Positions 34,667 to 44,596 of a stretch of DNA of 44,673 bases are shown one piece after another. How positions within the stretch are numbered: position 1 is the first letter of the stretch; every line of letters begins with the position of its first letter. The notes beneath the pieces were generated by a model. The model worked only from the letters and a program-made list of their open reading frames with translations. It ran no database searches and was not told where the DNA came from. The position numbers and the translations under genes are program-made. The stretch is taken from NCBI GenBank assembly GCA_021769135.1, contig JAETTM010000033.1:1-44673 (forward strand). Direction: 5' to 3'. Origin of the DNA: Lachnospiraceae bacterium (lineage in GTDB: Bacteria; Bacillota; Clostridia; Lachnospirales; Lachnospiraceae).

Positions 34667-36736
34667 TCAGCGGTTTTTATAAATAGTCAGACAGTTCTTC
34701 CCATCCTTGTACTCATAAATCACTTCATCCATACTCTTCTTCACCATATAAATACCGAGGCCGCCGATTTTTCTCTCTTCCGCGCTGAGGGTCACATCGG
34801 GGTCTTCCTTCCCCAACGGATTATAAGGCTTCCCACTGTCTTCGAAGCGTATGGCAAGAGTTTTCTTCTCTTCATCAAACCGGCATTTGATGGTTGCCTG
34901 GCCGCCGTCACCTTCATAAGCATAGGAAGCGATATTGACAAAGATTTCTTCCACAGCTATAGAAATCTGGATTCCTGCTGCCATGGGGAATCCCGCTTTA
35001 TCTATCTGTCCTTCCACGAATTCCATCACCCCCGCAAACGCATCCTTTTTCGCGGGGCACACCATCTCTGCCCATTCTTCCGGAACAGTTCCCCCGAAAT
35101 TTCCCGCAGTTTCTTCCGGAACAGGCTCTAGAGGCTGCTGTAGTTTACCCATCCGCAACGCCAGCATGGTGATATCATCGGACTGCTCCTCGCCTTTGGT
35201 AAAAGCGGACAGTTCTTCGCTGATAAAGGCCAGTAACGGTTCCGGCATCATATTCTTTACCTCAGGCCTGGAGAGCGCCCGCTCCAGTCTGTCATCTCCG
35301 AACAGTTCTTCCTTCGTGTCCAACGCTTCCGTCACACCGTCCGTATAAAGGTAGAGGGTATCTCCCACGCCAAGCTGCAATTCGTTTTGTCTGTAACGGA
35401 CGCCTTCCATACCTGCCAATACGAAACCGGGCCGTGCCTTTATCCATTCTACGGTTCCGTCCTTTCTGATGATGAGAGGATAATTATGTCCCGCATTCAC
35501 ATAAATCATATGGCCCGTATGGATATCCATGACTCCCATCCATCCGGTAACAAACATACCTACTTCATTGTTTTCGCACAGCTGTGCATTTACATTGGTA
35601 AATACATCCGCCGGCGTTTCTTTGTTCTGGGCATGGTTCTTGATCAGCGTCTTTGCAATGACCATAAACAGTGCGGCAGGCACTCCCTTTCCTGACACAT
35701 CGGCCATTACCACAGCCAGATGATCTTCGTCCACCATAAAGAAATCATAGAAATCTCCCCCCACCTCTTTGGCCGGATGCATGCTGGCATAAATATCGAA
35801 CTCATCATGCTCCGGAAAGGCCGGGAAAATATTGGGCAGCATATCCGCCTGAATCTGTGTGGCTACGTTCAGCTCCGCGCCAATCCGTTCTTTTTCCGCA
35901 GTCACCGACATCAGGTTTGTAATATAGCGGTTGATATTTTCTTCCATTCTGACCAGGCTGTGATACAGATCCCCGATTTCGTCCTTTGTTTTTACCGTTA
36001 TACCGCTAAATACCGAAATTCCCATTTCGGAATGTGACTTTTCTTCCTTTACCAGACGGTCCGCCGCATCCGACAATCCTTTTAACGGTTTCACCAGCGT
36101 TCTCATGGTGATATAAATAAACAGCGCGGAAAGAGCTATTGTAATAATTATTAACAGGCCAACCATTTTCATACGGAAGCTATTTAAATCCTTCATCACC
36201 GCATCCATGGAAATATCCACAGCCATACAGCCTGCCGGATTCCCCTTGGAATCAAACAACGGATAATTAATGCTCATCAGCCAGCCGAATTCTTCATTGC
36301 TGATGATGGGTTCCGTATATTCGCCTCTTACCAGCTTTTCCGCATTTTCAGAAAACGCGCCCTCGTAATAAGGTTCATGAAAGCCCATCGGTATGGCATT
36401 CTCCGTAGGGTCCGTATCCCACAGATAATATACCTCATCCAGTTCCGGCTTCGTCACATACAGAAATTCAATACCCCCATTTTCTCTTATCTCGCACAGC
36501 CTGTCATAGCTTTCCATATATTCCTCATCCATATCCAGCGTATCAATATAATACTGTATTTTGTCCGGATTGATCTGTGCAGCTGCAATCTTCGCAATAT
36601 TCGTAGCCACCGTCTCATAATGATTAAAAAGCGTTCTCCGGTAATAACTGTAACTGAATATAATCATAACCGTGCTAAGACATAAAGCAATAATGAAAAT
36701 CTGTAAACTGATTTTTTTGCTTAACGTAAATTTCAT
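34667..36736 (-). CDS. Membrane PP2C (RsbU/SpoIIE-like) phosphatase fused to an RsbW-like domain
   Basis: Protein of 689 residues. Two membrane helices (about 11-29 and 191-211) enclose an extracytoplasmic sensor; HAMP follows (212-265), then a coiled coil, a PP2C phosphatase domain (about 305-530) with metal-site motifs GGDFYDFF, MADVSGKG, YTDGVTEA and DDITML, and a C-terminal HATPase_c domain of RsbW/SpoIIAB type (about 560-689). The latter is intact: N-box Glu596/Glu597 and Asn601, G1 box Asp633-Ser-Gly635, G2 GGLGIYMVK. One chain thus joins a phosphatase and a kinase-type domain, both expected to act on a STAS protein such as 39415-39714. Last gene of the operon; AAAGGAG before ATG. Confidence 0.9.
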   Translation of the reverse strand: MKFTLSKKISLQIFIIALCLSTVMIIFSYSYYRRTLFNHYETVATNIAKIAAAQINPDKIQYYIDTLDMDEEYMESYDRLCEIRENGGIEFLYVTKPELDEVYYLWDTDPTENAIPMGFHEPYYEGAFSENAEKLVRGEYTEPIISNEEFGWLMSINYPLFDSKGNPAGCMAVDISMDAVMKDLNSFRMKMVGLLIIITIALSALFIYITMRTLVKPLKGLSDAADRLVKEEKSHSEMGISVFSGITVKTKDEIGDLYHSLVRMEENINRYITNLMSVTAEKERIGAELNVATQIQADMLPNIFPAFPEHDEFDIYASMHPAKEVGGDFYDFFMVDEDHLAVVMADVSGKGVPAALFMVIAKTLIKNHAQNKETPADVFTNVNAQLCENNEVGMFVTGWMGVMDIHTGHMIYVNAGHNYPLIIRKDGTVEWIKARPGFVLAGMEGVRYRQNELQLGVGDTLYLYTDGVTEALDTKEELFGDDRLERALSRPEVKNMMPEPLLAFISEELSAFTKGEEQSDDITMLALRMGKLQQPLEPVPEETAGNFGGTVPEEWAEMVCPAKKDAFAGVMEFVEGQIDKAGFPMAAGIQISIAVEEIFVNIASYAYEGDGGQATIKCRFDEEKKTLAIRFEDSGKPYNPLGKEDPDVTLSAEERKIGGLGIYMVKKSMDEVIYEYKDGKNCLTIYKNR

Positions 36737-36756
36737 TCCATACTCCTTTCAGGACT

Positions 36757-38502
36757 TTAGAGCTTTACGACTAAAGCGTTAAACCCTACATATCTGCGGT
36801 AGAAAAATTCCTTTGCCTTCTGCTTTACAATCTTCATACCCAGAGATTCCACGTTATGCGCCTGCTTCAAATCCAGGCTGTTTGTATCCATATCAAAAGG
36901 ATTAAAGGCCAGCGCGTTGTCTCTTAAATAAAGGCTGCATCCCTCTCCCTCAATCACAACGGTCAATTGTATGTATATCTCATCCATACTTTCTTTAAAC
37001 TGCTCCATAATCGCACAGCAGATTTCTTCAATCACCAGACTGATATAATATGCGTTCTTTCCGCCCAGTTTCTTCTGCTGGCAAAATACTTCCACCTCTT
37101 CGATAATCCTGCCGATATCCGTATCCGAACTGTTGATAAAAATTGCCTTTACCTGGCTGGTATCGATAGACTTTAACTGCAGCCAGTCCTTTTTCCAGGC
37201 CATATACCCGGCCCAAATCAACAGCGTCAACGCTTCCGCGACCAAAAAATGCCACCAGAATCCATTGATTCCGAAACGTCCGCACCAAAATACTGCCGCC
37301 AGATAACATACAAAAGTGCGCAATGTAGTAATCAGATAAGAAATCCTCTCCACTTCTATGGACTGATAATAATATCCGAAAGTGGTATTAACAATCATCA
37401 GCAGAACACTCGCCATATAAATCCGGATACCGGCCACACCGTATCCCAGCTCCGGCATCCCGCTTAATCCGAACCATACTACCAGCTGCTCCGTAGCGCC
37501 TCCAATCAACAGGATAAACAAAAGCCCCAGCCCAATGGAATGCCGGAAAGAAATCTTCAATGTATTCCTGATATTTCCGATATTCCGCTCACTCCGGTAA
37601 CTCGACAGCATGGGTTCCAGAGTCATGGAAACGGCCTCTGTCACAGCCAGAAACAGCGTAGAAATATTATAAATCACATCGAATGCCGCTACGCCTGTGA
37701 TACCGCTCATATTCATCAACATGCGGTTCACTACAATCATGGTTATAAACTGATAGAAATACTGAATCGAGGTGGCCAGCCCCGTCTTCATCGCCTTCCA
37801 GGCAATACCCAAATCTATACCCCCGCCGGTAAACCGAAGAACGCCTTTTCTCCTGATGATATGGCTCCCGGTCAGCGTCAGCATCAGACAGGCCCCAGCC
37901 ACGGTAGCATACACCGAACCCTGTACTCCAATCTGCAATCTTACCACCAATATATAGTTTAAAACAATATCCACTACATTGGACAGACTTAAGGATAATG
38001 CCGCAAGGCCCGGATTGTTGTCATTATGTACAAAATAATAAAAGGGACCCTGAGAAAACATCACCGGTATAAAGATAAGCTGCGTCCTGATATATGTCCT
38101 GACCGTTTCATTCGCCGGATCTGCACCTAACAGCCGTATGAACTGCGGCAGAAATAACATTGCCAGAGCCACCGTTGCTACATAAAGGACCAGCAGGCAC
38201 TTAAATACCGAATTAAAGATACGTATCCCTTCTTTTTCCTCTCCTTTTGCCACGCTTGACGAAAAATGGATGGAACCGCCGATAGACATGCCGTAGCTCA
38301 ATATATTATAGAATAAATAAACCGGCATACCGAAGCTGACCGCTGCCAGCCCTTCGCTTCCGATACCATTCCCAACAAAGAAACAATCCGCCACGCCTCC
38401 CAATGCGATCCATAAAGAGGAAAAAATGGAGGGCAGGAAAAATTTCCGAAAGGTTCCTTTTACAAAGTATAATTCTTTATCTTTTTCTATTTTTCTTTTC
38501 AT
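36757..38502 (-). CDS. MATE-family transporter fused to a degenerate RsbW-like domain
   Basis: Protein of 581 residues. Residues 1-437 are a MATE/polysaccharide-flippase type carrier with twelve predicted helices (FFLPSIFSSLWIALGGVADC at the start). Residues 450-581 form a cytoplasmic HATPase_c-like domain of RsbW type. Its N-box reads Glu492-Glu493-Ile-Cys-Cys-Ala497, where the Mg-binding Asn should be, and the G1 box has Asp528-Asn-Ala530 in place of Asp-x-Gly. ATP binding is therefore probably lost, leaving a protein-binding module. The ATG overlaps the upstream stop (ATGA). The natural partner is the STAS protein of the same operon, which could open or shut the carrier. Confidence 0.88.
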   Translation of the reverse strand: MKRKIEKDKELYFVKGTFRKFFLPSIFSSLWIALGGVADCFFVGNGIGSEGLAAVSFGMPVYLFYNILSYGMSIGGSIHFSSSVAKGEEKEGIRIFNSVFKCLLVLYVATVALAMLFLPQFIRLLGADPANETVRTYIRTQLIFIPVMFSQGPFYYFVHNDNNPGLAALSLSLSNVVDIVLNYILVVRLQIGVQGSVYATVAGACLMLTLTGSHIIRRKGVLRFTGGGIDLGIAWKAMKTGLATSIQYFYQFITMIVVNRMLMNMSGITGVAAFDVIYNISTLFLAVTEAVSMTLEPMLSSYRSERNIGNIRNTLKISFRHSIGLGLLFILLIGGATEQLVVWFGLSGMPELGYGVAGIRIYMASVLLMIVNTTFGYYYQSIEVERISYLITTLRTFVCYLAAVFWCGRFGINGFWWHFLVAEALTLLIWAGYMAWKKDWLQLKSIDTSQVKAIFINSSDTDIGRIIEEVEVFCQQKKLGGKNAYYISLVIEEICCAIMEQFKESMDEIYIQLTVVIEGEGCSLYLRDNALAFNPFDMDTNSLDLKQAHNVESLGMKIVKQKAKEFFYRRYVGFNALVVKL

Positions 38503-39392
38503 TCATTCTCACCTACTACGCCAATATATACCTTTTGATATTCTTCCGGCCTGTATAGCAGCTTTTTCTCACGAAGCCCCTCATGTCCCATATCATCTTC
38601 CAGATTCACATAATCCACATATCCTTTCAGCATCCGGCAAAGAATATAAAGCATATAGAAATCGATTCTTCCGGCCTCCGGAAGCTTTTTCATAAAATGC
38701 ACATCAAAGGTATCGTCATGCAAAAGCCTTCCTATGATATATCCCACAGGGCGTGAGTTCTCGCGAAACAGAATACCGCGCATACCCAGTTCTTCATAAT
38801 GGGCAAGAGCCATTTGCTGCGCTTTTTCATCCGCCATATCCATGGTATCATGCTCCATTTCCCATCTGGCTTCTATCTCCAACACCTCCGACAAATCAGA
38901 AGGCTTTATCGGAAGGAAACGGATTTGTCTCTGCCGTCTTACTTTATTGATATAATAGCGAATCTTGCTGTATTCCTTCCCTCTTAGCGCAAGAAATTTT
39001 TCTACATCTATCACATAGTCGCAGGAAGCCCTGTCCTCATCCAGGAACAGCAATTCTTCCCCATATGTTTTCTGCAAAAACTCCCTGTTTTTCTCGCTGA
39101 TAAAGTGAAATCTTACTCCTTCATCCTGAAGCAGCAGTCTGTCAATCGCCTCTTTCACCCTCTCCGGCTTTCCGCAGGGAAAGAAATAATCCCTTTCTCC
39201 CACCATAGCATATTTTACCGTAAAACAGTCTTCCTCCACACAGATGGACAGGCCCAGTTCTTCCTGCCAGCAAAACAACACGGGAAACGAATAGGAAGAA
39301 GAGGTTTCTCCGCTCATGCTCCGTATCCGTTCCACCTCTTCCTCATCTTCCATAGAAATAATCCGAAACTCACATTTTTCCAACGTTTTCAT
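38499..39392 (-). CDS. DUF2156 (LPG_synthase_C-like) protein
   Basis: Soluble protein of 297 residues with the twin-GNAT fold pattern of DUF2156. Around residues 145-160 lies YSKIRYYINKVRRQRQIRFL, the usual basic helix, and near residue 215 lies FRENSRPVGYIIGRLLHDD. The closing segment EGLREKKLLYRPEEYQKVY is also typical. Relatives form the catalytic C-terminus of MprF, which moves an amino acid from tRNA to lipid; stand-alone members have no settled role. Transfer of an aminoacyl group to lipid, or to the RiPP product, are both possible. It overlaps the MATE gene by four bases. Confidence 0.8.
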   Translation of the reverse strand: MKTLEKCEFRIISMEDEEEVERIRSMSGETSSSYSFPVLFCWQEELGLSICVEEDCFTVKYAMVGERDYFFPCGKPERVKEAIDRLLLQDEGVRFHFISEKNREFLQKTYGEELLFLDEDRASCDYVIDVEKFLALRGKEYSKIRYYINKVRRQRQIRFLPIKPSDLSEVLEIEARWEMEHDTMDMADEKAQQMALAHYEELGMRGILFRENSRPVGYIIGRLLHDDTFDVHFMKKLPEAGRIDFYMLYILCRMLKGYVDYVNLEDDMGHEGLREKKLLYRPEEYQKVYIGVVGENE

Positions 39393-39414
39393 TACACCAA
39401 CCTCTGTCCTGCTG

Positions 39415-39714
39415 CTATTCTACCGTAAGAATATCTATAAAACCGGTCATTTCAAACACTTCCATAATCGTATCATCCACATGGAAAATGGACATTTCCA
39501 CACCGTTTTTGTCGCTGAATTTCTGTCCGTTCAAAAATGCACGCAAACCGGCACTGGACACATAAACTACCTGTTCTAAATCAATACGCAGCTTATCCGT
39601 AGTTGCCAGTTCCTCTAACAGCTTCGCTTCAAACTCCGGCGCTGTTGTGGTATCGATTCTTCCTTCCACTGCCAAGATTTTTCCGTTGTTTTCTTCTTTT
39701 ACCTGAATGTTCAT
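39415..39714 (-). CDS. STAS-domain anti-sigma factor antagonist
   Basis: Protein of 99 residues with a single STAS domain of SpoIIAA/RsbV type. VEGRIDTTTAPEFEAKL is the usual first half, and VVYVSSAGLRAFL holds the expected phosphorylation site (Ser54, by position matching Ser58 of SpoIIAA). Such proteins bind RsbW-type domains when unphosphorylated and are reset by a PP2C phosphatase. Both kinds of partner are in this operon but no sigma factor gene is, so the target may be the MATE-linked domain. Confidence 0.92.
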   Translation of the reverse strand: MNIQVKEENNGKILAVEGRIDTTTAPEFEAKLLEELATTDKLRIDLEQVVYVSSAGLRAFLNGQKFSDKNGVEMSIFHVDDTIMEVFEMTGFIDILTVE

Positions 39715-39730: not shown

Positions 39731-40585
39731 TTATATAATAGTTAATTTTTTCAAAAAAGAATCCTCCAGCAAATATTCCAAAGGTTTCTTCCTTTCACTG
39801 TTTTCATAAAATGCCTGTAACGTCTCTATCCAGATTTCCGCCCGCCGTACCATCCCTTCCAATTCATGGGATTCCACATAGTTTTCCAGCCTGCCGCCGG
39901 CATGGTATGCTCCTTCCCGGATACCCAGCAGCGTTTTCGCCAGCGTTCCGTCATATGTGCCAAAGGCGGCCAGAAGACCGATGCTGTCCGCAACTACTTC
40001 ATCCCGTACCGTCTGAACATCGTCCGAATACCGCTTCCTGCTGACTGCATGAGCCAGTTCATGATAAATCCTGATTGTTCTGGATTTTTCCATCCACTCC
40101 TCGGGCGTAAAACCGGCCTCCTTTGGCGTAACCGCGCTGTAATAACCTTTGCTGACTAAAAGAACGGTGTCTTTATAATTCTCCTTTTTCGCGGTAAACC
40201 GCTTAAATTCTGCCTGCCAGTCCGTCTTTCCCTGAGCCAGATATTCCTTTTTATGGGATTCTATCTTTCTCCAGTTATTCAGCCCGCTAATCATCACTGC
40301 TCCCATGGAGGGAGGAATCGCCGCCGGTTCACACCGATGGGCCAGTGCGCGGACAAAGTATTCGAACATCTCGCGTTCCGGCAAATACAATACTTCTATT
40401 GCTCCTGTCGGCATATCCATCAGGAGCAATTTTTCCTCCCCTGTCTCCTTACCGTAAAAAGCGGGATGCTCCGGCAGAATCCCTCTGCGCACTATGTTCC
40501 CATAGGCTTCTGTTTTGCTCATCCCTTCTTCAATGGCCAGTGCAAGCTGCGGATATCTCCATGTATAAAGCTCAATGGGCGTCAT
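39731..40585 (-). CDS. HExxH-motif protein, possible zinc peptidase
   Basis: Protein of 284 residues, not assigned to a family. At 171-179 it reads IRIYHELAH, with His175-Glu176 and His179 as in gluzincin peptidases, and 17-21 residues on DEVVADSIGLL offers Glu196 or Asp200 as third metal ligand. No signal peptide or membrane helix is seen, so it acts in the cytoplasm. Its ATG lies inside the end of the radical SAM gene with GGAGGCAAAGC upstream, so the two are coupled. In this setting it could cut the leader from the precursor peptide, since no C39 peptidase is encoded here. This function is inferred. Confidence 0.65.
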   Translation of the reverse strand: MTPIELYTWRYPQLALAIEEGMSKTEAYGNIVRRGILPEHPAFYGKETGEEKLLLMDMPTGAIEVLYLPEREMFEYFVRALAHRCEPAAIPPSMGAVMISGLNNWRKIESHKKEYLAQGKTDWQAEFKRFTAKKENYKDTVLLVSKGYYSAVTPKEAGFTPEEWMEKSRTIRIYHELAHAVSRKRYSDDVQTVRDEVVADSIGLLAAFGTYDGTLAKTLLGIREGAYHAGGRLENYVESHELEGMVRRAEIWIETLQAFYENSERKKPLEYLLEDSFLKKLTII

Positions 40586-43037
40586 GCTTTGCCTCCTTCT
40601 CCATATACTGCATAAACAGGGTAAACACGTTCAAAAACCAGGGGGCATACCGTTCCGGATTATCCTGCATATCCTTTGCCAGCCAGTCGATTTCCACATA
40701 TTTCATTTCCTCCGCTTCCTTTGGATTGCAGACAAATTCCCCGTCATATTCCCCGGCCAGCACATGATCGTATTCGTATTCTACAAGCCCGTTATCGAAC
40801 ACCGCACGGTAGACGAAGCTGCCAATCTCCCCGATGTCCACTTCACAGGAAATGCCTGTCTCTTCAGAAAGCCGCTTTTTTGCCGAAGCAATCAGCTCCT
40901 CTCCCCTTCTCGGATGGGAACAGCAGGTATTCGCCCAGAGGCCGGCGCTGTGATACTTTCCTGCCGCCCTCTTCTGAATCAGGACTTTATTGTCATGATA
41001 GAGCAACACGGAAAATGCCTTGTGGAGCAGCCCTTTTTGATGCGCTGCAAGCTTTTCCTCCGTTCCGCAGTCCTCATCCTTCATGTTTGTCAGAATCATG
41101 GCATTTTTTTCTTCTTCTGATTGCGGCTGTATTTCGGTTTTTAGTTCCGTCTTATCCTTCAGGGCGCACTTTGTGCCTCCCATGGCAATCTCTCCGTTCA
41201 GCTTGACGCTTACCGCCATACAAGGCAGACAATTTACCTGATACTTACAACTGCTGCAGGGAGATTTTTTCTCATCCTCCACTTCTCGCAGAGTTTGCAG
41301 TACAGAAGATTCGTTCCAATATTTTTTCAAAGAAAGCGTCTCTTCCGGGAATTCCAAATGTCTGCAGGGAGTTAGCTTTCCGTCCACATTCACGGAAACC
41401 CCGTCCCTTCCCGCACCACAGCCTCTGCCAATGCCGCGGTTTATATTTGTAAAAAATCTTTCTCCCAGAAGAGCCTTCATCTGTGAAAAGCACTCTTCCG
41501 CAACGATATGTACCGGGCCTTTATAGGCCTTAATCTGCGCTGCTACACTGCGAAGCTGCGCTTCATTTGGCACTCCCGGAAGCTGATGGGAAGCGTCCGG
41601 CTTGAATACCATCACCACCAGTTCCCTTACTCCATACTCCTGCGCCAGCCTAATCATCTGCGAAAAATCCTCCGCATTACAGGCATGCATCACCCAATTG
41701 ATGCAGATGCGCGGGTAATTCAGCTCCTTTAACAATTGCAGCGTTCGAATGGCCAGCTCATAGCCGTCTCTTGTTTTGCTGTTAATCTCCTCCGTACTGC
41801 CGTTTAAGGAAACACAGATATCCGCCGCACCGCTTTCGATTAGTTCCTGTAGCTTCTCTTTCGTCAGCCCGTAACCGGATACCGCAATATTCGGCTCCAG
41901 CCCGTAATCCCTGCATGCCCGGAGCAATGTGGTCAGATGGGGGTAGCACATGGTCTCGCCGCCGCTTAGATTTATAATCTTCACGCCATTTGCCGCCGCT
42001 TCCCCAATCCAGTACAACGCTTTTTCCAAAGAAAGCTCCTTACCTGTAGTCAAATCACAGTAACACTGCGGACACCGTAAAGGGCATTTGTCCGTCAGTT
42101 CCAGATTCATCAGCACAGGCGCGCTGTAGGCTCTGAAATCCTCTGACATAAGATGGCTTCCCTGCCGCAGATAGGCCTTTGCCGCCAGTACCTGTTCTCC
42201 CTGGAAGGGCAGCTTGAAATGGGAAATGTCATTCATCATAAAAGGACTGTGCGCCGGAAATGTTTTCACCCATTTCAACACATCCTGCCTTTTAGCAGGC
42301 AGGCAAAGCCCTTCTTCTGACAGGAAATCCAACCATGCCGAAACCGTTTCCGGCTTCTTATCTTCGGTTCCCAGATTGATGCCTATTTTCCCGGAGATTC
42401 TATCGCTAAACACATCGAAATCCAGAATAAACATTTCTTTATTGCTGTATGGCGCCAGCTTTGCAAGGAGCCCCGACAACCTATCCGTATCCCCCTCCCA
42501 GTGGAGGTCCTGCAAATAAGATACGAGGGTTTCTTTCTTCATATCCTCCGTAAACAGGCGAATACTGTCCTCCTGCTTTCTGCCCCTCATCACACCCAGC
42601 TGGAAAAGCGTCTCACACCTGCCAGTCAGCCTATCCACACAGCGTTCCAGCATGGGCCGGAGCTTCTTCGCCCGTTCTTCTCCTGCCAGCTTCGGAAGAA
42701 TGTTCTCATAAAATGCGCTGTTATCCTCTCCCGGTCTGACGGCGGAAGCATCGATAAACAAACAGGGAACAATCTCTCTTTCCCCATAAGAGCCGTAATC
42801 CATTTCGTACCAGTATTCCCGTACTGTCTTATCTTCCGTATCAATCCTGATAGAGTAATCACAGCCTCTCTCTTCTCTATTTAATACCACTTCCAGAATC
42901 GTTTCTTCCGATTCCGTCTCTCCGTAAATCCCTTCTATGTTTGCCAGTTCCTTTATACATTTCCCGCTAAAAAGTTCGGGAAAGTTCTCTTCCCGGAAAT
43001 AATTCAGATAATCCTTTACCTTTGTTCCCGTTTTCAT
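40572..43037 (-). CDS. PatF-like(?) / radical SAM-SPASM / isopentenyl-diphosphate isomerase fusion
   Basis: Protein of 821 residues in three parts. (1) Residues 1-300: an alpha/beta domain without an obvious motif. Its strand pairs LFQLGVMRGRKQEDSIRLFT and MFILDFDVFSDRISGKIGIN recall ABBA-fold peptide prenyltransferases of the PatF/LynF kind; a recognition domain is the alternative. (2) 305-625: radical SAM with Cys318, Cys322, Cys325 (CPLRCPQC), LSGGE, and a SPASM region (Cys540, 558, 594, 597, 603, 606, 624). (3) 645-815: type I IDI, with LLHKAFSVLLY, NTCCSHPRRGE (Cys705/706), LSEETGI and EYEYDHVLAGEYDGE. IDI makes DMAPP, the prenyl donor. Start 43037 has AGAGGA; an ATG at 43049 overlaps the upstream stop but lacks a ribosome site. 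Confidence 0.85.
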   Translation of the reverse strand: MKTGTKVKDYLNYFREENFPELFSGKCIKELANIEGIYGETESEETILEVVLNREERGCDYSIRIDTEDKTVREYWYEMDYGSYGEREIVPCLFIDASAVRPGEDNSAFYENILPKLAGEERAKKLRPMLERCVDRLTGRCETLFQLGVMRGRKQEDSIRLFTEDMKKETLVSYLQDLHWEGDTDRLSGLLAKLAPYSNKEMFILDFDVFSDRISGKIGINLGTEDKKPETVSAWLDFLSEEGLCLPAKRQDVLKWVKTFPAHSPFMMNDISHFKLPFQGEQVLAAKAYLRQGSHLMSEDFRAYSAPVLMNLELTDKCPLRCPQCYCDLTTGKELSLEKALYWIGEAAANGVKIINLSGGETMCYPHLTTLLRACRDYGLEPNIAVSGYGLTKEKLQELIESGAADICVSLNGSTEEINSKTRDGYELAIRTLQLLKELNYPRICINWVMHACNAEDFSQMIRLAQEYGVRELVVMVFKPDASHQLPGVPNEAQLRSVAAQIKAYKGPVHIVAEECFSQMKALLGERFFTNINRGIGRGCGAGRDGVSVNVDGKLTPCRHLEFPEETLSLKKYWNESSVLQTLREVEDEKKSPCSSCKYQVNCLPCMAVSVKLNGEIAMGGTKCALKDKTELKTEIQPQSEEEKNAMILTNMKDEDCGTEEKLAAHQKGLLHKAFSVLLYHDNKVLIQKRAAGKYHSAGLWANTCCSHPRRGEELIASAKKRLSEETGISCEVDIGEIGSFVYRAVFDNGLVEYEYDHVLAGEYDGEFVCNPKEAEEMKYVEIDWLAKDMQDNPERYAPWFLNVFTLFMQYMEKEAKHDAH

Positions 43038-43045
43038 ATTTCCTC

Positions 43046-43966
43046 TCATTCCGCCGCGTTGGCAGCTTTTCCATTCCCTGAATTTATATCCATCCGCTCA
43101 ATATCCATACATGCTTCCAGTTTTTGCAGGAACGTCTCCTCCACCCATGGAAATACTTTAGATGGCAGATAACCGGAATATCTGGAACGGCAGATATCGA
43201 TTACAGCAGGGCGGATATTGCGGTCGGTCAGCCACCCAAGCAGCCGGTCCATTCTTTTTATCATCCGCTCCTTCTCAGGCAGCTTATCAGGCTGGAATTT
43301 CTCCCGGTATTCCATATAGTACCTTCCGTCTTCTTCCACCATCTCCAAAAGCAGTCTCGGCAGAATACGGAAAGGATGGTAGGGATTTTCCCGATATTCC
43401 CTGTAAGCTTCCCGGGTTATTTCCATCCTCTTGGGGGGCACGCCGCTTAAGGAATCATCCCATGCAAAATAGTCCAAATCCACATCCAACACAAGGGGCT
43501 CATCCGGCAAATCCATCTCTCCAAGGCCTCCGTTCCGCCAACGGTAAAAACGATACGGGCTGTCCGGCGCTCCCACATAGCTTCCATGAATAAAGGGAAT
43601 CATGCTGCCTGTTTCCAACCCCGTACCGGAATACGCCGCTCTGACAAACCTCCGTTTTTCCTCAATCCGGCGGGGCAGAAGATTCTTTAATATATGTACA
43701 TCGGTAAATATCCCCTGATACACTGCGGGTATGATAAAATCAGCAATACCAAGCTTACTGTAAGTAAATTCCTTTATACTGTCCAAATCCTGCTCTTCCA
43801 AAAGTCTTGAAAAATCATACTCATATCCGCCGCATTCCATATCATCATGATGGTCCACATGGAGCAGATAGTTCCCGTTCTTTGGAATATATCCTTTCTT
43901 TATAAAGAAGTTCCAATAATAAAATGCCTCATGGTGTTCTTCCATGATATAAACAGGTATCGCCAT
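43046..43966 (-). CDS. UPF0489 protein, peptide-arginase family
   Basis: Protein of 306 residues. UPF0489 members include OspR, shown to turn Arg into ornithine within a RiPP precursor (established for that family). Two arginase-like Mn sites are visible: HVDHHDD (His36, Asp38, His39, Asp41, Asp42) and LDVDLDYFAWDD (Asp161, Asp163, Asp165). It is the first gene of the operon and lies opposite a precursor whose core ends in three Arg. Start ATG 43966; a GTG three bases upstream has slightly better spacing from GGAGA. Cytoplasmic. Confidence 0.85.
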   Translation of the reverse strand: MAIPVYIMEEHHEAFYYWNFFIKKGYIPKNGNYLLHVDHHDDMECGGYEYDFSRLLEEQDLDSIKEFTYSKLGIADFIIPAVYQGIFTDVHILKNLLPRRIEEKRRFVRAAYSGTGLETGSMIPFIHGSYVGAPDSPYRFYRWRNGGLGEMDLPDEPLVLDVDLDYFAWDDSLSGVPPKRMEITREAYREYRENPYHPFRILPRLLLEMVEEDGRYYMEYREKFQPDKLPEKERMIKRMDRLLGWLTDRNIRPAVIDICRSRYSGYLPSKVFPWVEETFLQKLEACMDIERMDINSGNGKAANAAE

Positions 43967-44232
43967 CACATCTTATCTCCCAATCCATTGTTTTGTCTCA
44001 TTATGGTGTAAAAGACATAGTACTACTTATATTTTATATACACGCGGGAACGCAGTTTTGTGACACATTTTTTGTTTTTTTTTAAAGTTCAGCCTCGTAC
44101 CTGCAAATGGTACGGGCTGAACTTTTCCGCTTTTCTTCTGTAACAGTTTTTGCCTGCAAAGTGTATATAAAAATGTAAAGGATTTTATTTCTTCACAAAA
44201 CAAAAACATACATTTAAAGGAGGTAACTTACT
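43967..44232. promoter_or_regulatory. Divergent control region with a long inverted repeat
   Basis: Between the operon and the precursor gene. AAAGTTCAGCC (44084-44094) is the exact complement of GGCTGAACTTT (44115-44125), with an inner GTACC/GGTAC pair (44097-44101, 44109-44113). AT-rich boxes that could be -10 elements lie on each side (TATAAAA on the minus strand near 44030, TATATAAA at 44164-44171), but I see no clear -35. A terminator is less likely, as transcripts here start rather than end. AAAGGAGG serves the precursor. Confidence 0.5.
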
Positions 44233-44532
44233 ATGGAAGAAAAAATCAAAGCATTAATGGAAGACGAGGCATTTGTTGCCAAACTCGTAGAGTTTGAAAC
44301 TCCGGAAGAGGTTGTTGCGGCCTTCCGTGAAAAAGAGGTTGAAGTTTCTGTTGACGACATCACAAATTTAAAAAAGCAGTTGGAAAAAATGAGTGAAAAC
44401 GGCGGAGAGCTTTCTGAGGATGAACTGGAAAGTGTGGCAGGCGGTTCAATAACCGGCCTTATCATAGCGGGTATAAGCTGCGCTATCAGCGCAGCTGCTT
44501 TTACACATGAAGCTACTAGGAGGCGCTGGTAA
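44233..44532 (+). CDS. RiPP precursor peptide with Nif11-type leader
   Basis: Peptide of 99 residues. Residues 1-71 are a charged helical leader of Nif11-like type (MEEKIKALMEDEAFVAKLVE, TPEEVVAAF), ending in the double-glycine site ELESVAGG. The core, about residues 72-99, is SITGLIIAGISCAISAAAFT followed by HEATRRRW: hydrophobic, one Cys (Cys83), one His, and three adjacent Arg before a C-terminal Trp. The Arg run suits the UPF0489 enzyme encoded opposite. Cys, Trp, Thr or Ser could accept radical SAM or prenyl chemistry. AAAGGAGG lies ten bases before the ATG and a terminator follows, so it is made as a single-gene transcript. Confidence 0.88.
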   Translation: MEEKIKALMEDEAFVAKLVEFETPEEVVAAFREKEVEVSVDDITNLKKQLEKMSENGGELSEDELESVAGGSITGLIIAGISCAISAAAFTHEATRRRW

Positions 44533-44559
44533 TTCGTTCACAAAAAGAGTGTAACGCTT

Positions 44560-44596
44560 GGGGCTGTTGCACTAAAAAGGGTGCACCAGCCCCTTT
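44560..44596 (+). terminator. Terminator of the precursor gene
   Basis: GGGGCTG/CAGCCCC with inner TGCAC/GTGCA and an 8-base loop, then TTT, 27 bases after the precursor stop. Confidence 0.75.

What the first reader, a model, noticed from the sequence alone, without database searches (positions are those of the whole stretch)
39731..44532. Candidate new RiPP pathway: Nif11-leader precursor opposite a peptide-arginase, radical SAM-IDI fusion and HExxH protein
A 99-residue precursor with Nif11-type leader and VAGG site faces an operon that begins with a UPF0489 protein and a radical SAM/SPASM protein. The classes of precursor and enzymes are seen in the sequence and known from RiPP biology. I do not know a described pathway that joins a peptide arginase, a radical SAM-isomerase fusion and an HExxH protein. 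The combination predicts a hydrophobic peptide with ornithines and at least one further modification.
Basis: partly seen in the sequence, partly recalled or inferred. Interest (0 to 1): 0.95.

Follow-up and report, generated by a model that had tools for sequence, protein, structure and literature searches.

The report
Nif11 peptide pathway with arginase, isomerase
A bacterium carries genes predicted to build a small, chemically altered, bacteriocin-like peptide ending in tryptophan, and one of its modifying enzymes is fused to an isoprenoid isomerase.

Summary
At 44233-44532 (+) is a Nif11-leader peptide with a VAGG site; opposite runs a predicted operon: UPF0489 peptide arginase, radical SAM-IDI fusion, DUF7005 HExxH protein. 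Relatives in five other genomes show a real, rare RiPP family. All 14 precursors found in the six loci end in Trp, the only invariant core residue. Where the locus has the arginase, the residue before Trp is Arg in 7 of 7 precursors; otherwise in 1 of 7. DUF7005 is in all six genomes, but in 4 of 366 class genomes (own included). A C39 peptidase/exporter set lies at the end of another contig. The IDI keeps the isomerase residues; in G173 it is a separate gene fused to a LuxR-type HTH. STAS follows in three of six loci (one across a contig break), and one relative fuses a HATPase to DUF7005. A distant rSAM relative (G067) sits by a precursor without C-terminal Trp. The RiPP reading is supported. 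The claim that no pathway joins arginase, radical SAM and HExxH is too strong: biphenomycin does, without IDI. The HExxH protein matches no NCBIfam model and is not shown to modify peptide. Best guess: an exported, bacteriocin-like peptide with an Orn-Trp end. New variant of a known kind.

The parts
44233..44532 (+). RiPP precursor: Nif11-type leader (44233-44445, ends VAGG) and 28-aa core (44446-44529) ending Thr-Arg-Arg-Arg-Trp
   Evidence: TIGR03798 33.4 bits, cut-off 32.3; only match in its genome; homologues beside related rSAM genes
44518..44529 (+). Arg-Arg-Arg-Trp C-terminus: predicted Arg-to-Orn sites and the invariant C-terminal Trp
   Evidence: 14 of 14 precursors end in Trp; penultimate Arg 7/7 with arginase in the locus, 1/7 without
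43046..43969 (-). UPF0489 peptide-arginase homologue (Arg to Orn, inferred)
   Evidence: PF12640, NF052474 199.6 bits, below its cut-off of 350, peptide arginase structure 8brp E 5.8e-44 with all three metal-site motifs
40572..43049 (-). radical SAM protein with an N-terminal domain of unknown family (42135-43049) and a C-terminal type I IDI (NUDIX) domain (40572-41114)
   Evidence: no significant family or PDB match for the N-terminal domain
42063..42086 (-). CxxxCxxC radical SAM motif (residues 322-329)
   Evidence: invariant in the 4- and 5-row alignments
40572..41114 (-). IDI domain with the E. coli IDI active-site residues kept
   Evidence: alignments to 3hyq and 1i9a and to six other IDI proteins; residue roles recalled
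39731..40585 (-). DUF7005 HExxH protein (HExxH at 40049-40063; third-ligand candidate Glu of RDEVVAD at 39998-40000)
   Evidence: PF22541 204.4 bits; alignments; metal binding is inferred
39415..39714 (-). STAS anti-sigma-antagonist-like protein, next gene of the row
   Evidence: PF01740 60.6 bits; STAS also follows UPF0489 in L002 and L098
34667..39392 (-). LPG_synthase_C, MATE-HATPase-like and SpoIIE-HATPase genes continuing the row; link to the peptide uncertain

Best explanation
This is a Nif11-leader RiPP pathway. SHOWN from sequence: the precursor, a peptide-arginase homologue, an rSAM-IDI fusion, DUF7005, and an NHLM-type C39 peptidase/exporter set elsewhere in the same genome. INFERRED: in the cytoplasm the arginase turns the C-terminal Arg residues of the leader-bearing precursor into ornithine; the rSAM, nearest in sequence to PqqE, acts at or near the invariant C-terminal Trp (cross-link or oxidative change); the C39 exporter cuts after VAGG and secretes a hydrophobic, bacteriocin-like peptide with a cationic Orn-Trp end. 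DUF7005, present in all six genomes of the family seen, is most likely a zinc-type metalloprotein acting on the peptide or in producer protection, under STAS/HATPase control in some strains. The IDI domain either supplies DMAPP for a prenyl group or senses isoprenoid diphosphates. Rough confidence by step: RiPP pathway 0.9; Arg to Orn 0.75; rSAM at the Trp end 0.4 (lowered from 0.45 when I weighed the G067 case below); role of IDI open.
For: Genes and domains. rSAM and Nif11 precursors together in window, L002, L003, L037, L004, L005. Trp at the C-terminus in 14 of 14 precursors; penultimate Arg 7/7 versus 1/7, Fisher p 0.0047, not independent; three Nif11-leader peptides from other clusters do not end in Trp (L083 two, L045 one). 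Arginase motifs. rSAM part best in the PDB to PqqE 6c8v, E 1.5e-18. Exporter: TIGR03796 1043 bits, TIGR03797 878, TIGR03794 257, Peptidase_C39 126. DUF7005 in 6 of 6 family genomes versus 4 of 366 class genomes, own included. Bacteriocin-like cores: of the precursors scanned, L037:12094-12420 (32.0) and L005:10771-11076 (22.4) pass the class IIb model TIGR03949, cut-off 21.5; the window precursor misses it, 19.9.
Against: No biochemical data. The exporter is on another contig; adjacency is not shown. Six loci are few, and precursors within a locus are not independent. The G067 rSAM (L045), 29% identical to the window's over its N-terminal and rSAM parts, lies by a Nif11 precursor that ends in Asp, not Trp: in a distant relative the Trp rule fails. 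The L004 and L005 rSAMs lack the N-terminal domain. L002 looks decayed or misassembled. In G173 DUF7005 lies on another contig, not beside the cluster. No leader-binding domain was identified. AlphaFold models were poor, so no fold evidence supports a catalytic role.
Confidence: 0.72

Rival explanations
1. The IDI domain supplies DMAPP for prenylation of the peptide (on Trp or Orn); the N-terminal domain of unknown family or an unlinked enzyme is the prenyltransferase.
For: IDI residues kept in window and G173. IDI recurs with arginase and rSAM in window, L002 (broken copy) and G173. A search of the own genome with the whole rSAM-IDI protein gave no second match. In two Lachnospiraceae an IDI lies near UbiD and flavoprotein genes, a pathway that I recall uses dimethylallyl phosphate. 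Trp geranylation on a precursor with a Nif11-like leader is reported (PMC12715784, passages).
Against: No prenyltransferase recognised in the loci. The N-terminal domain has no significant match. L003's genome has the arginase and no clear IDI.
Confidence: 0.3
2. The IDI domain is a sensor of isoprenoid diphosphates that couples peptide production to the isoprenoid or cell-wall carrier pool.
For: In G173 the IDI is one ORF with a LuxR-type GerE HTH (PF00196 42.1 bits), a regulator-like architecture; anti-sigma-type genes recur in the loci.
Against: The catalytic residues are kept, unlike what I recall of sensor NUDIX proteins; in the window IDI is fused to an enzyme, not to a DNA-binding domain.
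Confidence: 0.3
3. DUF7005 is an alphaKG-HExxH peptide hydroxylase.
For: HExxH motif in a RiPP gene row; such enzymes are described in RiPP clusters, one of them with a UPF0489 arginase (PMC12707348, PMC12636437, passages).
Against: No NCBIfam match up to E 10 for two members; no PDB sequence relative up to E 10; alphaKG enzymes use O2 while Lachnospiraceae are anaerobes (both recalled); one member is fused to a HATPase.
Confidence: 0.2
4. The STAS to SpoIIE genes are a separate unit, and the RiPP genes sit upstream of them by chance.
For: Of 7 other genomes whose MATE-HATPase regions I fetched (of 8 found), 6 show no match to my RiPP reference proteins beyond generic ABC ATPases.
Against: STAS follows UPF0489 in L002 and L098, and L098 fuses HATPase to DUF7005; in G265 the module lies by another Nif11/NHLM cluster. 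This rival bears on regulation only.
Confidence: 0.3

Closest known systems
Pathways with PF12640 peptide arginases, such as landornamide (OspR)
   Same: UPF0489 homologue with all three motifs; leader-bearing precursor with Arg in the core; Nif11 leaders are among known partners (PMC12703449)
   Different: rSAM with IDI fusion, DUF7005 and a fixed C-terminal Trp; below the cut-off of the FlmR/OhkR model
Biphenomycin (bip) cluster
   Same: joins a UPF0489 arginase, a radical SAM enzyme and an HExxH hydroxylase (PMC12707348, passages)
   Different: B12-type rSAM, MNIO and TldD-like protease; no IDI or Nif11 leader mentioned in the passages seen
Lah Nif11 cluster of a Lachnospiraceae strain (LahT C39 exporter)
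   Same: several Nif11 leaders cut at a double Gly by a C39 exporter domain, diverse cores (PMC6363468, passages)
   Different: a lanthipeptide operon; no arginase or IDI mentioned in the passages seen
PqqE / mycofactocin rSAM maturases
   Same: PqqE is the closest rSAM model and PDB relative; the mycofactocin maturase is also among the best models
   Different: far below those families' cut-offs (106.3 of 381.35 and 78.1 of 265 bits)

Membership tests
Nif11-like leader RiPP precursor (TIGR03798) | leader model score over cut-off | tested here: met
   33.4 against 32.3 bits. All six relatives scanned fall below the cut-off (26.0-31.2)
Nif11-like leader RiPP precursor (TIGR03798) | double-Gly cleavage site and a C39 exporter in the genome | tested here: met
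   VAGG at residues 68-71; C39 exporter on contig C39; adjacency not shown
Peptide arginase (PF12640) | EEH(N/H)EAF, DxHxD and LDIDLDYF motifs | tested here: met
   aligned to 8brp; motifs as given in PMC12703449
Peptide arginase FlmR/OhkR subfamily (NF052474) | score over the cut-off of 350 | tested here: not met
   199.6 bits
Peptide arginase (PF12640) | converts Arg to Orn in the precursor | not testable with these tools
   needs co-expression and mass spectrometry
Type I isopentenyl-diphosphate isomerase | family score and active-site residues | tested here: met
   NF002995 145.8 of 127, but TIGR02150 103.4, just below 105.8; residues kept, roles recalled
alphaKG-HExxH peptide hydroxylase | sequence match to the described hydroxylase family | tested here: inconclusive
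   no NCBIfam match up to E 10, but the family used in PMC12636437 (IPR026337) was not compared directly
PqqE / mycofactocin rSAM maturases | equivalog cut-off | tested here: not met
   106.3 of 381.35; 78.1 of 265
NHLM export system | TIGR03794, TIGR03796 and TIGR03797 over cut-off | tested here: met
   257.2/156.2, 1043.2/853.3, 878.2/709.4 bits, on contig C39

The most novel reading that the evidence does not exclude
A new RiPP class whose conserved C-terminal Arg-Trp is rebuilt into an Orn-Trp end by an arginase and a PqqE-like rSAM, coupled to isoprenoid metabolism: the IDI domain feeds a prenyl group onto Orn or Trp, or reports the isoprenoid-carrier pool, while an anti-sigma-type STAS/HATPase switch directly controls a metalloprotein (the HATPase::DUF7005 fusion).
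Probability: 0.2. Interest if true: 0.85.

Novelty: new variant of a known kind. Interest (0 to 1): 0.62.

Why it matters
It gives a small, testable enzyme set for anaerobic peptide chemistry near a fixed C-terminal Trp, and a peptide-arginase branch with a clear sequence signature (Arg-Trp at the C-terminus). It raises a question on which my searches found no paper: why an isoprenoid isomerase with intact catalytic residues travels with, and here fuses to, a peptide-modifying radical SAM enzyme. It also gives an unassigned HExxH family (DUF7005) a genomic context and a regulatory fusion partner.

Tried and rejected
AlphaFold2 of rSAM-IDI (mean pLDDT 42.9) and of DUF7005 (54.0) was too poor to use; Foldseek of the DUF7005 model gave no match at E 0.001 or better and I draw nothing from it. 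I wondered whether the rSAM N-terminal domain is a prenyltransferase-like barrel; Pfam gave only insignificant matches (best 0.22 for the window), NCBIfam and the PDB profile none, so this is not claimed. PHROGs gave no match for that domain, DUF7005 or the arginase at E 0.01. Phage or plasmid origin: pattern scans of viral contigs found no relative of the arginase or DUF7005; plasmids gave none for rSAM-IDI at 1e-40 or the arginase at 1e-15. UPF0489 hits in G207, G127 and G299 have no rSAM, DUF7005, IDI, exporter or precursor match in the stretches fetched. Other rSAM hits (G257, G069, G364, G329, G067, G586, G627) show no UPF0489, DUF7005 or IDI match in the stretches fetched and are taken as other clusters. 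Contigs C5 and C39 share only a 15-base stretch near their ends, so adjacency is not claimed. Promoter and terminator scans were near the shuffle mean. Precursor count: ORFs of 35-139 aa with [VA][AV]GG in L003, L004, L005, L037, L055 and L045, plus the window ORF and three L002 peptides found by tblastn; a precursor without that motif would be missed. Dropped rows: three minus-strand ORFs without a leader (L003:6572-6907, L005:795-1139, L045:10595-10864); L045:5063-5311, which belongs to another cluster, was kept as a control. Two of the 14 have incomplete leaders (L002 third peptide; L037 second peptide, cut by the contig end).
Full report
Observation. The precursor (44233-44532, +) scores 33.4 bits on the Nif11 leader model (cut-off 32.3) and is the only match to it in its genome at E 0.001. 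On the other strand UPF0489 (43046-43969), rSAM-IDI (40572-43049) and DUF7005 (39731-40585) overlap at their ends; STAS (39415-39714), LPG_synthase_C, MATE-HATPase-like and SpoIIE-HATPase genes follow closely. The contig ends at the window end.

Relatives. A scan of genome contigs with the rSAM-IDI protein gave four loci: L002 and L003 (Lachnospiraceae), L004 (Ruminococcaceae) and L005 (Clostridia), all with Nif11 precursors by the rSAM. Of 397 Lachnospiraceae genomes, 13 matched a four-row rSAM profile at E 1e-40: six through the IDI part alone (G229, G245, G311, G065, G148, G124), five through the rSAM part (G257, G069, G364, G329, G067), and only the own genome and G173 through both. In the genus, 13 of 16 genomes had a match at E 0.001; the 12 other than the own genome were partial, 6.1e-19 at best. 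A five-row profile matched 3 of 391 class genomes at E 1e-60: own, G586 and G627, the last two only in the rSAM part. UPF0489 occurs in 5 of 397 family genomes. The family is rare and scattered. G173 (L037) has HlyD-like, two NHLM-type ABC proteins, UPF0489, a separate IDI gene, rSAM and two precursors on the other strand, the second cut by the contig end.

Precursors. In the six loci I count 14 precursors with a VAGG site (how they were found and what was dropped is in Tried and rejected); 14 of 14 end in Trp, the only invariant core position. With UPF0489 in the locus (window 1, L002 3, L003 1, L037 2) the residue before Trp is Arg in 7 of 7; without it (L004 3, L005 4; no tblastn match in those loci, their whole genomes not searched) in 1 of 7; Fisher p 0.0047, but precursors within a locus are not independent. 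Three Nif11-leader peptides of other clusters do not end in Trp: two in L083, one in L045. The L045 one counts against a strict rule, for it lies in the same 19-kb stretch as an rSAM that is 29% identical to the window's over residues 11-612, N-terminal domain included. The cores are mostly hydrophobic with a cationic end. Two of the relatives scanned pass the class IIb bacteriocin model TIGR03949 (L037 32.0, L005 22.4; cut-off 21.5); the window precursor does not (19.9).

Enzymes. The arginase homologue aligns over residues 3-295 to 8brp with all three metal-site motifs. The rSAM core is nearest to PqqE (6c8v, 1.5e-18) but far below the PqqE and mycofactocin cut-offs, so it is not filed under either. 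Its N-terminal 305 residues have no significant Pfam, NCBIfam or PDB match; the domain is shared with L037 (42%) and L045 (31%) and missing in L004 and L005. The IDI domain passes NF002995 (145.8 of 127 bits) and just misses TIGR02150 (103.4 of 105.8); against E. coli IDI the metal-binding His, the catalytic Cys and His and the two Glu are kept (roles recalled). In L002 an IDI lies in the same frame after the rSAM, behind a stop and without its N-terminal part, and the rSAM is frameshifted: a decayed or poorly assembled copy. In G173 the IDI ORF ends in a LuxR-type HTH (PF00196 42.1 bits). L003's genome has only a weak hit (9e-4), those of L004 and L005 none. The intact fusion is thus seen only in the window.

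DUF7005. It lies beside the rSAM in the window, L004 and L005, as a C-terminal piece in L002, in L003's genome on contig C113, and in G173 on another contig, unlinked: 6 of 6 genomes, against 4 of 366 class genomes, own included. Distant rSAM relatives such as G067 were checked only in the fetched stretch, with no DUF7005 match. HExxH and a downstream Glu are kept in the members aligned except G607, whose diverged copy, like that of G647, is the end of a longer protein that reads by eye as a radical SAM protein, in G607 next to what reads by eye as NRPS and PKS genes. DUF7005 matches no NCBIfam model up to E 10 and no PDB sequence up to E 10.

Regulation-like genes. L098, of the same genome as L003, starts with the last part of UPF0489 where L003 breaks off (query residues 216-291 against 2-218); then come STAS and one ORF holding HATPase_c_2 (1.1e-20) and DUF7005 (1.9e-54). 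That the two contigs abut is inferred. L002 has STAS followed by what reads like the start of a HATPase with stops. So STAS follows in window, L002 and L003, 3 of 6 loci. By identity the window STAS is hardly closer to those (52 and 47%) than to three of the four STAS proteins compared from modules of other genomes (47-49%; the fourth 34%), which weakens the link for the window. The MATE-HATPase gene is found in 1 of 16 genus genomes at E 1e-60 and in 9 of 397 family genomes at E 1e-80. Of seven of the eight others, one (G265) has it beside a Nif11/NHLM cluster with a LanM-type protein and an rSAM.

Export. The own genome has a sigma factor and TIGR03794, TIGR03796 (with C39) and TIGR03797 proteins at the end of contig C39, 178 bases from the contig end. 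The same kind of exporter lies upstream of the rSAM in L003, L004, L005 and L037. A 15-base stretch is shared with the end of C5; adjacency is plausible, not shown.

Literature seen. PMC12703449: parts 1-2 of 5 and passages. PMC12707348, PMC12636437, PMC13060819, PMC6363468, PMC12715784: passages only. PMC10028609: start of abstract in a listing, and a search of its text for six terms, none found. One clue from PMC13060819: in its clusters an alphaKG-HExxH protein, when absent, is replaced by a predicted arginase. Searches on this combination: IDI + radical SAM + RiPP, one paper, unrelated by title; UPF0489/DUF7005/PF12640, six papers, none with DUF7005; STAS + anti-sigma + RiPP + radical SAM, none; Nif11 + peptide arginase, three; C-terminal tryptophan + radical SAM + RiPP, one, on lasso peptides; Nif11 + radical SAM + tryptophan, eleven, judged by title and abstract start except PMC12715784; isopentenyl-diphosphate + isomerase + RiPP or prenylated peptide, 12 of 18 listed, none on this by title. 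The library holds only open-licence papers.

Verdict. A real, rare and, in my searches, undescribed RiPP family. What is new is the rSAM-IDI fusion, the C-terminal Trp pattern with its arginase correlate, and the DUF7005/HATPase link. The chemistry is inferred.

Noticed in passing
L098:656-1948: One ORF joins an RsbW-like HATPase_c_2 domain to DUF7005 directly after a STAS gene: an anti-sigma-type kinase domain fused to an HExxH protein.
   Followed up: partly
L037:9376-10119: Isopentenyl-diphosphate isomerase with a C-terminal LuxR-type (GerE) HTH in one ORF.
   Followed up: partly
window 34667-39714: STAS, LPG_synthase_C, MATE with a weak HATPase-like end (19.0 of 27.4 bits), and SpoIIE phosphatase fused to HATPase: a partner-switch-like module; its MATE protein is in 9 of 397 Lachnospiraceae genomes at E 1e-80.
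   Followed up: partly
L083:2740-14014: In G265 that module lies beside a Nif11/NHLM cluster with a LanM-type protein and an rSAM.
   Followed up: partly
L089:7149-9722 and L090:7111-9684: DUF7005 without HExxH at the end of a longer protein that reads by eye as a radical SAM protein; in L089 next to what reads as NRPS and PKS genes.
   Followed up: no
L088:9195-10330: DUF7005 beside a small peptide with a TAGG site and a zinc-ribbon-like tail; the peptide matches no family.
   Followed up: partly
L045:3319-8552: Three tandem proteins, 72-81% identical, that read by eye as rSAM proteins, around a Nif11 precursor ending in Asp.
   Followed up: no
L056:2262-7261 and L060:1284-6850: IDI genes within a few kb of UbiD and UbiX-like flavoprotein genes in Lachnospiraceae.
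   Followed up: partly
window 44559-44593 and L055:14584 onward: A hairpin-like GGGGCTGTTGCACT...CAGCCCC sequence follows both the precursor and the last exporter gene.
   Followed up: partly
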